64,000 nucleotides of DNA from Glandiceps talaboti. Its lineage: Eukaryota > Hemichordata > Enteropneusta > Spengelidae. The notes below the pieces were generated by a model, which was not told where the DNA came from, did not search any database, and saw only the letters and a list, made by a program, of their open reading frames with translations. The position numbers were made by a program, and so were the translations under genes. This document shows, one piece after another, positions 4,597-49,274 of the stretch. Numbering within the stretch: the first letter of the stretch is position 1; each line of letters starts with the position of its first letter. Where the stretch lies: NCBI RefSeq assembly GCF_964340395.1, contig NC_135566.1:16691001-16755000 (forward strand). The letters run 5' to 3'.

Positions 4597-4961
4597 TACA
4601 ACTGCCGACATTAGACTGTAGACGAACAGAATCTGTTGCTAACAGAGAAAGTAAATAACTAAATTTGATTAATAACACTTGGCATTGAATGTCGGAAATA
4701 CAGAGACTTGTATTACATTCCATCATTTGATAAGAACAGTTTTATGCGATGGCCACTTGACATAATAGTTCACATTCACAAACAAATTTCCTGTTCCCCT
4801 GGTATTTCATATACGTACACATAAAGAGGTCATAAAACTGTTCTTATTAAACCATGAAAAGTAATACATCTGTTGTTCTAACATGCTGTGCCAATTCATT
4901 TGTTTACTTTCCCTGTTTGTAACTGGTTCCGTTTGTCCACGGTCTAATGTCAGCAGTTGTA
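4597..4961. mobile_element. MITE with long terminal inverted repeats, TA-flanked (Tc1/mariner-like)
   Basis: The left end CAACTGCCGACATTAGAC (from 4,599) is the inverse of the right end GTCTAATGTCAGCAGTTG (to 4,959). The inverted similarity continues inwards as imperfect arms of well over 100 bp, including 'gataagaacagttttatg' near 4,730 against its complement near 4,840. A TA dinucleotide flanks both ends, as for Tc1/mariner insertions. A second copy lies at 32,381-32,663. No transposase frame is present, so it is non-autonomous. Confidence 0.75.
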
Positions 4962-30778: not shown

Positions 30779-33700
30779 ATGGCATCACCAAGATTGGAAT
30801 CAATGTGCTGTATTAATACAACCCAACATGGACAGTCAACACTACTCGGAACCAGAGTGTACAACATTACATGTATCGTAAGTGCATCGCTTAGCATTCT
30901 GGGAGCAGTCTACCTGTTACTCCCAAGGAAAATACCAGAGAATGCAAGGAGGAGGAAAAACCTTGGCTATGAGAGACAGATCAAGATAATCAATTGGTTG
31001 ACACTAGCAGATCTACTGGCATGCATAGGTAACGATAAGTAAATTTTAAGTCTCATGTATCATGAAGGTGTGACATCACACATTTTTGGAATATCAGATA
31101 TATATCGTCTAGTATCGAACTTAGACTGCACTGTCCAGTTCATTTATATTCGATACTAGATGATATTAGATTAACAAAATATCCTATAATTATCTGATAT
31201 TTATTGGTGATTTCGTTGTCTATCATCCATAAATATCCGATATCGTTAAAATGTGCAATGTCGCAGAGTCCTCGCCTGTATACTAGCTGAATCTGTGATG
31301 TTGTTTCATTCACTAATGAGCATACTGGAGTCACAGATTTAGCTAAACAGACACATCTTCTACATGGACCATAAAGTATTGTAGTGGTTGTTGTCACATA
31401 CAGTATCTGTGTGTACTGTGTAGTAAGCAGAAGTGATGACAACAAATTGAGTTTTTGACTGTAGAGGTAATCAAAGTTATCACACACACTATCAGTCACT
31501 TCTGTTGGGTGACTGTGTCATCATCGAAAAAAAATTAATCAGTTTAAAACCTTAATAAGTCACATGCTAGCCCAAAGACTGGCTATCCGATCTGACAATG
31601 CGCAACGTCATTCGCCAGGGTCAGATAGCTGAGTCTTTGGGCTAGATCAAGTCACATACACCAAAGATATTGAAGAGAAAATACCGGATAATTTTTGTAT
31701 TGAATTTCGAAATAATTCTTGAAATATTTTCTTGACAGTTTTGATCACAACAATTAAATATGTACATGTAAACTGTGACAGTGAAAGCTTCATTTTGTGA
31801 AATGAAACCCTCCATGTTATGAAGTTGTCATGTGATTTGTCACCATTGTTTGTGGCTGTAGATTTATTCCCCACAATAATATTTACAGAGTGTATGTAAG
31901 TACTTAAAATAGCTGCGACCTTTGACCCCATTTACCTACAATACAAATATTGCCCAATGTATTATAGAAATGCTTGGATAGACAAATGACAAGTAAGTTG
32001 TGTGATTGTTTACATAACATGTAGTTTTCCAACCATATAGTTGACTATTCAATGGAAACTTCTATTATCACTGCAGCTAATAAATAGAAAGGTACCCGTA
32101 TGTCATGATATGGGGGCATGATGTCATGTGAGAAATATGTCACCCATACCACAGTACAGGAAGATGAATTCATTGACTTCACCCAACTTCCATTGATAAC
32201 AAACCTTTAGGGAAATAGATACCTGGTACTTCCTTTCCATAAAATCAAGCATTTCTCATCTTTCTCAACTATTTCTGTTTAGTTACTTTTTTTTGTGTGA
32301 TGTAAATTGTTTTAATGAACATTTTTGACTGTTTGCCATATTGTGAGACAATCAATGAAAACAAAAAAATTACTTCTTTATACAACTGCCAACAGCAGAG
32401 ACTTGTATTACAGACCGTTGTGTAATAAGAACAGTATTATGGCCTCTTTATGTGTACATGAAATGCTAGGGGAAACTGGAAATTTATTTGTGAACGTGAA
32501 CTATTATGTAAAGTGGCCACAAAACTGTTCTTATCAAATGAGGGAATGTAATACAAGTCTCTGTATTTTCAACATGCTGTGCCAAGTGTTGTTAATCCAG
32601 TTCAGTTCATTACTTTCTCTGTAACATTTTCTGCTTGTACATTGTCTGATGTCAGCAGTTGTAATTCTCATAAAGGCATCCTTGAGTGACTGTCATTTTT
32701 ATTGAGAAATGCAAAATGGATTTATTGAATATGGTATGATATACACAAGAAAACAGTGTTGGTAATGATGATACCAACACACATAGTCTAGAGCCTATCC
32801 ATTGTGTTTGAATCTGAAGATCTCAGAAGAGGTCAAGGTAGCATTTTTTTACCATGTTTACTGACACTTCTATTGAAAAAAAAAATGCATCAAAACCAAT
32901 TAGTCACAAATTAATTGACTTATATTGTCAAATTGTATCAAACCCAAATTAAGCATAATGGCTCTGTAATATATTTATCCTCACTTTGTGGTCAGGCCTA
33001 AAAAAAATTGTGTGGTTCCAATTACATTCAATTTTAGAATAGGTGGGGTAAGTAGATTTTTAAAATTTTTTTTCATATGTGAGCGTCTAGTTCAGATAGT
33101 TATGTTTTCCGTTGTTTTCCACATGGTCTCTGTGTTATTGGTTTCTTCTCATCAGACTACAGATTGGAAGAACAGTTTTATATTGTCTTTAAGTTGATGC
33201 CATTTTCCACACCCACTATTTCTTGCGAGATGTCACAATTTTCGCAATTATATTTTATTTTTTCTCGGATATGTAAAAAAAAGTTTAGTGTCAGCAGTGA
33301 AAACTAGATGGGGTCGGGTAACCGGAACGAAACCATTTTTTTTAGGCCTCCTAAGTATTTAGACATAACTGTGTTAATCTATATGAAGTAATTAGAAGTA
33401 TTCTCAGTTTATACTGTCGTGATAAAATAAAAAATGTGTTAGTAAACTATACTGCAGCCTCGTTTTCCATGTTAATCTGATTATGTAATCTCATATTATC
33501 CTATAGGTATTCTAGTCCGATCAAGTACCTGGTTATCAATGTATGGAATATTTAAAAATATACCAACTCATAAAACTGGACATAAGAATGCCAGGATATT
33601 TTGTGCCATTTCTGGGGTAAGTTTCAACATCTTGTAACTGACCAAAAACATTCATCAGCTTAGTACATCAAATGATTTACAAAGGTTATAAGACAGAAAC

Positions 33701-37290: not shown

Positions 37291-40200
37291 GGGGGGGGGT
37301 TCCACACCCAATGAATCTCTATTTCAACGTTTTTCTTTCCTACTTAAGCATAAAGCATTTAAGCATTTGATTGACATGTACAATTAAGTTTTAGGATACA
37401 TATTGTGATTTGTTGTAAAACTGTTCAACATTTATTTCAATGACTTTTGATGTGTCATTTTAGCCTCAATATCTTTGTCTAAGTTGAGGGCACTCTCCAC
37501 CAGAAAGGTATATTGTGAGTGCTAATCTAAGGCCAAATAAAAAAAACCTGACCGACTCTAGTTTAAGCTGCTGACCCTCAGCATTTTTTTATCTTTTTAT
37601 ATTTATAAACAAAAGGTAAAATGGTGAGAAGTTACTGCTATTTCTGTGTAAATCTTACCAAAGTAACTTTGGTCAATTCTTTTTTTAAAATCCAGAAATT
37701 GAGTCTATCAAAAATGCAAGTTAAATTTATACAATACAGTGACTGTGCATATTGTGTTCTTCTACTTTACATATCATTTGGCTTCACTTACACATTATCA
37801 AACTATCACAGAAGTAACGTGACCAACGAGTATCACGTTTTGGGTCTATAAGCAATTTCTCAAAAACTAAAAGTAAAATCTCGACCCACCTTCCCTATTT
37901 TCTGAAGTCATGTTTTCAAAAACAAACGTTGAAAAAAAATTTGCCTAAGACCTAAAAAAAAGTTGTGTGGTTCCCATTAACTGACCCCACCTAGTTTTTC
38001 ACTGCCAACCCTTAATGGTTTTTTAGCTCCGCTGTCAGCGAAAGCTGAAAGCGTAGCTTAAGGTATAGGTGGGTATTGAGGTATAGAGAGTAGAGTGAAT
38101 CATAGGTGTCCGTCAAACTTTTATATTTTCACTATCTACTCCGAAAGTGACAGTCGGAATTCTTCGATATTTGGTGTGCATGTTCCCTGGGGGGAGGCTA
38201 TTCAGATTTGTTCATGCCAAGTTGATCTGTGCCATTTTCAATTTTTTATGATTTTTTTTCCAAAAATGACATTTTCATCAACTCCTCATAAACTTTAAGT
38301 CAGATTGCTTTGATATCTGGTGTGTTGATGCACAGGGGGTAGCTTACTTAGATTTGTTAATTTCAAGTCAGCACGTCTTCTCTTCTATTTTTTATGATTT
38401 TTTTTTTGAAATTTGAAAAAAAAATGAATATGTTAATGAGCATAATGACCGACGCCATATTGGAAATCAGTCCGCGAGACTTTAGGCAAAGTGCAACTTT
38501 TCAAAAGACACTATTGACGTCAAACAAGCAATGTAATATGTGCTATAGTCTTAATTCTACGCATTGTGCGCCCAAATGACAAATATTTGTTCGAAAAAGG
38601 TTTGTAAACTTCAAATCCAATTCACACACCACCCCTCCTACAGAATGGTTCATTCCAGTATATGCACCTCATAGCTCATGATCATTGTGAGAAGTCTTCC
38701 ATGCCTGAACTGAAGTGTTTTTGACAGAGTCAGTCGTCAATAAAAACGATAATACTCTTTCTAAAATTACCACATTTTGAAAGGGAAAGTACTTTGTGGT
38801 TCATTTATGGAGTTTTGTTTTTGTACGATCAATATTGGTGGCAAAATTACAGCATCAAAATTGCCGATGTGGTAATGCACGTAAATCCCAAGTACCCGGA
38901 TGCACGAGGGACTAACCCAGAAGCAAGTCGTTGTCAGCCTAGCTGCAATAATTGTAGCGTCTTGTTGCGGTTCTGTGGGTTTTTTCGTCTGTTTTGGTGA
39001 CTTTTTAAGTTTTAGTGTTTAACCCGCACCTAACAAATTAAACACTAAAACTTAAAAAGTCACCAAAACAGACGAAAAAACCCACAAAACCGCAACAAGA
39101 CGCTACAATTATTGCAGCTATTGTCAGCCATACGTTACAGTGCAGTGGTAACATCGTCTGATAAATCGCTGCGTTCAGTGTCATTATTCACAGAATTGTT
39201 GTTTTCGAGTGAAACCCCGTCTTGAATTGTATAACTCTAACAAATGAAGACATGTCAAGTTATATTTTGAAAGTTGTATTGCTAGTTTGAGACGATTTTC
39301 TCACGTACTATCGGGGCTTACTTGGACTTGGACCTTACTCCAGTTCATCGGGAAGTTTAGCCAGCCCGATAATTCTTTCTGGTTTAGTTTACAACACTTT
39401 TGATCGCGCAGATTTTGTTGTTGTGATGAAAAGAAATTAAAAAAAAGATCACTTCAACCATTTCGTTGTGTTTTCTTTATGAAAGGTAATCGAACATGAA
39501 CGAGTGTTACCACTGTAACCAGGAGGGTCTATGCTGTAACGTATGGCAAGGGTTCGACATACACGCTGGTCCGCTATCCCGCGATCGCGAGTCTAGTAAC
39601 TTTCTGTAAGGACCATGTACCAGTAAAGGTTACTAAAATGCTTGTAGGTAGTCCGACGGGCCGCGGGATAGTGACTTTTCGATAGGTATATCAGGGAGCT
39701 CAGAATTCAAACCACCGGCTATATGATGAATTCACGGTCATAGTAAAATTCATTTGATTTTTAATTTGCTATTTTGACCAACTCCGGTTGTCTATTCGCG
39801 ATAAAATTACGATTAGTTTGGGAACGGGGTAGATTTTCTATGATTCCGTGTCATAAAAGCATGTGTTGTGTAGTTTTCGAAAAGCACACCCGGTGGGAAA
39901 GTCGCCCAACAGACGATCTCGCGCCATTGCTGTACTACGTGGCACTTTATTCTGGCGGGGTGTCTCTTGAAAACGGGAATAGCGAACGATGAGCCAATCA
40001 AGTGAGACCTTTCAAATGTAGCTAATATTATAGCCAATAAAATTAGTTGTACGATGATATGTGTATAATAAGTCCTCTACACTGTAACAAGTAAATAGTA
40101 AAGTTGAAATCTTTGTCGCATGAATTCGTATTTATGTACGGATGCGTAGTCTTTCTGAACAGTAATTCTTAGATCAGTTAGTATTTAAACTTCGTTTCTG

Positions 40201-49004: not shown

Positions 49005-49274
49005 CATTACACATAGACTGTCGACAGTAGTTCGTGCCCTTTTTTGCTACGTTTCATCTAAAACAATGTTGTTGCCTCGCTCCATAGCACTGAAAGCTAA
49101 CGCGTACTGATAGGAAACTGAGTGCCGTAGGCTCGTGCCTCTGGCATTCGCTGTTGCTAAATAATCAGTACGCGGTTATAGTATTGCTCCAGATCAGAGT
49201 GAGGCAACAACTTTAGTTTTAGATAAAATGAAGAAAAAAGGGCACGAACGACTGTCGACAGTCTACATTACACA
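49005..49274. mobile_element. 252-bp foldback element with 9-bp target duplication
   Basis: The ends TAGACTGTCGACAGT and ACTGTCGACAGTCTA (49,014-49,265) continue as about 70-bp imperfect arms (shared GTTCGTGCCCTTTTTT, ATCTAAAAC and GTTGTTGCCTC). The centre holds a second inverted pair (GCGTACTGAT / ATCAGTACGC). CATTACACA occurs exactly at both flanks, 49,005-49,013 and 49,266-49,274. Non-coding. Confidence 0.9.

What the first reader, a model, noticed from the sequence alone, without database searches (positions are those of the whole stretch)
38931..39129. Nearly perfect 81-bp foldback element with a 9-bp target duplication in a GPR143 intron
The arms differ at one base in 81, and TTGTCAGCC flanks the insertion exactly. 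A palindrome this clean decays quickly, so the insertion is recent and mobilising activity may still be present in the genome. If transcribed in the GPR143 intron it would give a long double-stranded RNA hairpin that could be diced into small RNAs. The 9-bp duplication with almost no unique interior fits a Mutator-type foldback, but that class assignment is inference.
Basis: partly seen in the sequence, partly recalled or inferred. Interest (0 to 1): 0.75.

Follow-up and report, generated by a model that had tools for sequence, protein, structure and literature searches.

The report
Palindromic mobile DNA with broken centres
A short hairpin-shaped piece of mobile DNA sits in what looks like a pigment-receptor gene intron; it is one of many copies in this animal's genome, and most copies examined carry their own small scar at the hairpin tip.

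Summary
Window 38940-39120 is a 181-bp inverted repeat, 82 of 83 arm positions pairing, with TTGTCAGCC exactly duplicated outside. It is a mobile element: of the 40 best places in the 590-Mb genome, 39 gave two-ended copies with 9-10-bp target duplications, 38 exact; its 20-bp terminus occurs 616 times. The fullest form is a spacerless 190-bp palindrome (arms 95), apparently cut down from a ~690-bp fold-back element (L136).

Not in the finding: only 7 of 49 two-armed copies keep a symmetric centre; 42 carry about 33 kinds of central deletion or filler, as in laboratory 'center-break' palindrome revision. Arms of one copy share derived changes, so arm identity is a poor clock. At least eleven copies lack most or all of one arm; two of these keep the target duplication, one confirmed by a paralogous empty site.

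A Mutator-type mobiliser is plausible, but no partner with these ends was found. Current activity and small RNAs are untested. New member of a known kind.

The parts
38931..38939 (.). left target-site duplication TTGTCAGCC
   Evidence: exact copy at 39121-39129; 9-10-bp duplications at 39 of the 40 best places
38940..38959 (+). 20-bp terminus TAGCTGCAATAATTGTAGCG, shared by the 190-bp, ~690-bp and ~460-bp related elements
   Evidence: 616 exact genome matches, 0 for the reversed control; shared by the longer forms
38940..39034 (+). left arm, the full 95 nt of the family arm up to the palindrome centre
   Evidence: comparison with the other copies
39035..39037 (.). AAA filler at the broken centre
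   Evidence: decomposition against the 190-bp palindrome: reach 95 and 83, filler 3
39038..39120 (-). right arm, 83 nt, cut back by 12 nt from the centre
   Evidence: pairs at 82 of 83 positions with 38940-39022
39121..39129 (.). right target-site duplication TTGTCAGCC

Best explanation
A non-autonomous fold-back DNA transposon (MITE-like), a spacerless 190-bp palindrome in its fullest form, moved in trans by an unidentified transposase that makes 9-10-bp staggered cuts (most likely Mutator/MULE-type: inference). It seems to have arisen from a ~690-bp fold-back relative by loss of the interior between CTAACG and CGTTAG (inferred from the shared arm). Because a spacerless palindrome can extrude a hairpin or cruciform, copies are cut at or near the tip and rejoined with small losses or filler; the window copy is one such scarred copy (left arm whole, AAA, right arm minus 12). 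Shown: palindrome, copies, target duplications, longer form with the same arm, copy-specific centres, linked arm variants, one-armed copies. Inferred: transposase class, tip breakage as the cause of the centres, order and timing of events.
For: Of the 40 best places 39 are two-ended with target duplications of 9 (32) or 10 (7) bp, 38 exact; 37 independent sites, all with different target sequences. The perfect 28-bp centre occurs at only 11 places, 3 of them apparently one insertion in a segmental duplication and one (L123) a half-element. 42 of 49 two-armed copies have altered centres, 33 classes by script. Three of six shared classes join copies of different arm subfamilies (L106 with L039/L054/L055; L020 with L030; L132 with L052/L053), which favours repeated independent origin. 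Arms of one copy differ at 38 of 3292 positions against 2.20% between copies; 0 of 2000 re-pairings as low. L136 parent form. Literature: small central deletions were 93% of 118 rearrangements of a transgenic palindrome and stabilised it about 25-fold (passages of PMC8701086 on Cunningham 2003).
Against: No autonomous element found: on C1, C2 and C4, where the listing of exact termini is complete, none lies within 10 kb of the 16 (of 31) PF10551 matches there, and only one lies near a PF20700 match, a truncated copy beside a decayed fragment. Deletion ends at the exact centre are only weakly above chance (12 of 20, expected 8.2, p = 0.047). The other three shared classes could be inherited, and centres may have changed before insertion. 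37 of the 49 copies were fetched because they resemble the window copy. Some two-armed copies show no duplication (L127, L079) or a poor one (L132, 2 mismatches), and L020's lies in a simple repeat.
Confidence: 0.75

Rival explanations
1. The altered centres and one-armed copies come from abortive gap repair: after transposase excision the gap is refilled from the sister, synthesis stops at or near the palindrome tip, and the ends are joined. No tip cleavage is needed.
For: L128 (one arm, 96 bp) and L123 (an arm plus the inner 16 bp of the other) stop exactly at the target duplication, which a centre break with outward resection does not explain. L045 holds a further element of one arm plus the last 14 bp of the other end. 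Microhomology of 1-5 bp at 12 of 33 centre classes.
Against: Nine other copies lacking most or all of one arm have no target duplication within 500 bp of the terminus, which needs extra loss of flank. Excision was not shown.
Confidence: 0.4
2. Altered centres are inherited: several scarred source elements each spread, so centres mark subfamilies and say little about breakage in each copy.
For: Six centre classes are shared by two to four copies at different sites; L010/L011, L013/L027 and L015/L018 have compatible arms.
Against: 27 of 33 classes are single-copy by script; three of six shared classes cross arm subfamilies, and by eye L046 (T75A) has the L010/L011 centre too.
Confidence: 0.15
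3. The palindrome is an assembly fold or a local inverted duplication, not a transposon.
For: None found; long reads could not be examined.
Against: Dozens of copies with distinct flanks and 9-10-bp duplications; a paralogous empty site for the half-element L123.
Confidence: 0.01
4. The element is kept because the intronic hairpin is transcribed and cut into small RNAs that act on GPR143 or on the family.
For: Predicted RNA fold of -138.1 kcal/mol; a palindrome folds on either strand.
Against: No Rfam match at gathering scores in the window; no expression data; constraint was not tested.
Confidence: 0.05

Closest known systems
Tm1 Mutator/Foldback family of root-knot nematodes (PMC3169594; passages seen)
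   Same: fold-back ends, mostly 9-bp target duplications, MITE-like non-autonomous members
   Different: Tm1 ends hold repeated ~14-bp motifs and a member with a MULE-like transposase is known; here no coding member was found
Galileo of Drosophila (PMC3573991; passages seen)
   Same: long terminal inverted repeats, 98-100% alike within a copy, many solo-TIR copies (64 of 170)
   Different: P superfamily by its transposase, repeats of at least 600 bp; no spacerless palindrome in the passages seen
Spectre, Phantom and other animal MULEs (PMC6446971; passages seen)
   Same: 8-10-bp duplications; the complete Spectre element has perfect 74-bp inverted repeats
   Different: they carry a transposase gene; similarity of the ends was not tested
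Center-break revision of transgenic palindromes (PMC8701086; passages seen)
   Same: small asymmetric deletions at the palindrome junction
   Different: transgenes in mouse and cultured cells, not a natural transposon family

Membership tests
Fold-back / MITE-type non-autonomous DNA transposon | inverted repeats making up most of a short element | tested here: met
Fold-back / MITE-type non-autonomous DNA transposon | many copies at different sites, each with its own target duplication | tested here: met
   39 of the 40 best places, 37 independent sites
Fold-back / MITE-type non-autonomous DNA transposon | empty site with a single target copy | tested here: inconclusive
   shown for one half-element, L123, against a paralogous repeat; not tested for the window copy or any full copy
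Mutator/MULE superfamily | 8-11-bp target duplication | tested here: met
   9-10 bp; range from passages of PMC6446971
Mutator/MULE superfamily | ends shared with an element coding a MULE transposase | tested here: inconclusive
   none found, but termini could be compared fully only on C1, C2 and C4 and only two MULE loci were read
Mutator/MULE superfamily | movement catalysed by a MULE transposase | not testable with these tools
   needs an assay
Drosophila FB-like element | arms made of short tandem repeats | not tested
   no tandem-repeat search was run on the element

The most novel reading that the evidence does not exclude
The family is a natural record of what an animal germline does to a fresh spacerless palindrome: nearly every copy carries its own centre-break scar, arms are homogenised within copies, and single arms can be left behind (or can insert) with a proper 9-bp target duplication, so one TIR end may be enough. 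Counting scars by age across individuals would measure palindrome breakage and repair in the wild.
Probability: 0.3. Interest if true: 0.6.

Novelty: new member of a known kind. Interest (0 to 1): 0.42.

Why it matters
Perfect palindromes are hard to keep and hard to study; the centre-break evidence seen here in print comes from transgenes. A transposon that planted one 190-bp palindrome at many sites gives many outcomes on one starting sequence, in one genome, readable from assemblies. It also warns that arm identity alone cannot date fold-back insertions.

Tried and rejected
Autonomous partner by PF10551: 31 matches; two loci read (L117, 6.5 kb, 778-aa frame; L118, 4.5 kb, 306-aa frame), whose best resemblance to the terminus has 8 and 7 mismatches of 20; ends outside those stretches were not seen. 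By PF20700: 57 matches, two long open frames not read for want of letters; the one adjacency (L088, C1:27299288) is a truncated ~460-bp-family copy abutting a decayed transposase fragment; its 288-bp left flank showed nothing transposase-like by eye and was not searched. Termini followed by a base other than T: 13 places, none near a listed transposase match. Viral contigs: 0 exact 19-mers; prokaryote genomes: 8 scattered exact 19-mers, flanks not read, taken as chance. Rfam: nothing at gathering scores. Preference for the exact centre: weak. Empty-site test of nine one-armed copies: only L123 answered, because all 40 scored places (of 4,539 candidates) came from its repeat family; the other eight remain untested. 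Nine paper searches (at most 20 papers listed each) showed no title or abstract describing this family; that is no proof that it is unpublished, and the host species is unknown to me. No paper was read whole.

Full report
What is there. The window holds TTGTCAGCC at 38931-38939 and 39121-39129 around a 181-bp inverted repeat whose 83-nt arms pair at 82 positions. As RNA it folds at -138.1 kcal/mol, shuffles at a mean of -38.1. It lies between a GPR143 (PF02101) match at 30779-31030 and a weak one near 43.9 kb on the same strand.

Copies. The genome (590 Mb, 47 contigs) was searched with the 199-bp stretch: 728 candidates, of which 40 were scored. Of these 40 places, 39 gave a two-ended element with a 9-bp (32) or 10-bp (7) target duplication, 38 exact and one (L014) with one mismatch; L048 gave no second end. 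The test accepted at most one mismatch for duplications of 8 bp or more, and L020's duplication lies in a simple repeat. L024-L026 share one target and look like a segmental duplication, so there are 37 independent sites, all with different target sequences. The 20-bp terminus occurs 316 times on + and 300 on -, never in the reversed control. The first 100 of these places (C1 to C5) were listed. Of 40 one-kilobase stretches taken around listed termini, 14 gave a second end with a duplication of at most 2 mismatches; the others were one-ended, decayed, longer than the stretch or, in L079, two-ended without a duplication.

Fullest form and parent. L019 is 190 bp with 95-nt arms and no spacer. 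In longer elements the same arm continues as CTAACGCTACAATTCC; L136 is 693 bp with arms of about 321 bp differing by one indel, a 50-bp loop and an exact 9-bp duplication. A related ~460-bp family shares the first 20 bp and a diverged arm. That the 190-bp form is the parent minus its interior, joined at CG, is inference from sequence.

Broken centres. The perfect 28-bp centre exists at 11 places; intact arm tips, parents included, number 111. I decomposed 49 two-armed copies (L025 and L026 dropped as duplicates, L063 and L107 as too irregular). Seven keep a symmetric full-length centre (L038 with a point change beside it); 42 do not. The script puts the 42 into 33 classes. For L046, L122 and L124 point changes misled it into long false fillers; by eye all three are asymmetric, and L046 has the L010/L011 centre, so 32-33 classes is fair. 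Six classes are shared, three of them by copies of different arm subfamilies. The window copy is arm 95 + AAA + arm 83. Of 20 distinct simple deletions, 12 have an end within 1 bp of the centre against 8.2 expected, p = 0.047: weak. The pattern resembles center-break revision, where small symmetry-breaking deletions dominate and stabilise a palindrome (passages of PMC8701086).

Linked arms. In 47 copies (L063, L107 and L108 dropped, L133 not included; positions 36-44 left out because a G/T tract there is unstable) the arms of one copy differ at 38 of 3292 positions, arms of different copies at 2.20%; none of 2000 random re-pairings was as low. Much of this rests on T75A, in both arms of 15 copies; T26C is in both arms of 4, and T74C, C22T, G70T and G57T each in both arms of one. 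Changes must have passed from arm to arm at some time, so arm identity is not a clean clock. Against strong conversion after insertion: duplications differ at 1 of 358 positions in the first 39 copies (a test that favours matches), fewer than the arms do.

One-armed copies. At least eleven arms of the 190-bp type stop near the centre and run into unrelated DNA (L066, L067, L101, L104, L109, L110, L112, L119, L123, L128, L135). L067 stops short of the centre, L109 and L123 run past it, and L119's own terminus is decayed. For L066 and L067 no second terminus (at most 5 mismatches) exists within about 9 kb; for the others under 1 kb was seen. I tested 21 loci where no second end with a duplication had been found, including types other than the 190-bp one: two have the duplication at the break, L128 (96 bp, exact) and L123 (111 bp, one mismatch); 1-mismatch hits in L127 lie inside the element. 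L123's joined flanks match all 40 scored places across the join, and the one read (C26) has a single target copy. L123 and L128 fit gap repair that stopped early, or insertion by one end; the others fit a break with loss of flank. I cannot choose.

Mobiliser. 9-10-bp duplications fit MULEs (8-11 bp, PMC6446971). PF10551 gives 31 and PF20700 57 matches, but no element with these ends and a transposase was found. The listing of termini was cut at 100 places, so only C1, C2 and C4 (and the small C3) were compared fully.

Verdict. A real fold-back, MITE-like family; its class is inferred; the new interest is in the copy-specific centres and the one-armed copies.

Noticed in passing
window 49005-49274: A second fold-back element: 49014-49265 with TAGACTGTCGACAG ends, 69-nt arms (78%), flanked by an exact 9-bp duplication CATTACACA.
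   Followed up: partly
L093:776-991: A second perfect palindrome (107-nt arms, 2 nt between) beside a ~690-bp-type element; it looks protein-coding by eye, perhaps helicase-like (recalled), perhaps a local fold-back duplication.
   Followed up: no
L088:289-1001: Truncated ~460-bp-family copy directly abutting a decayed PF20700 Mutator transposase fragment.
   Followed up: partly
L117 (G000:C7:2092500-2099000): 778-aa open frame with a MULE match; by eye (recalled) also Ulp1-like and PHD-like parts.
   Followed up: no
window 4709-4868 and 32396-32563: Two copies of another inverted repeat (GAGACTTGTATTACA...), also seen by eye in L066.
   Followed up: no
L045:60-864: Three related insertions piled into neighbouring CTGCAT-bearing targets, one of them an arm plus only the last 14 bp of the other end.
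   Followed up: partly
L007 and L008: Two Bartonella genomes hold an exact 19-bp match to the terminus; flanks not read, probably chance.
   Followed up: no
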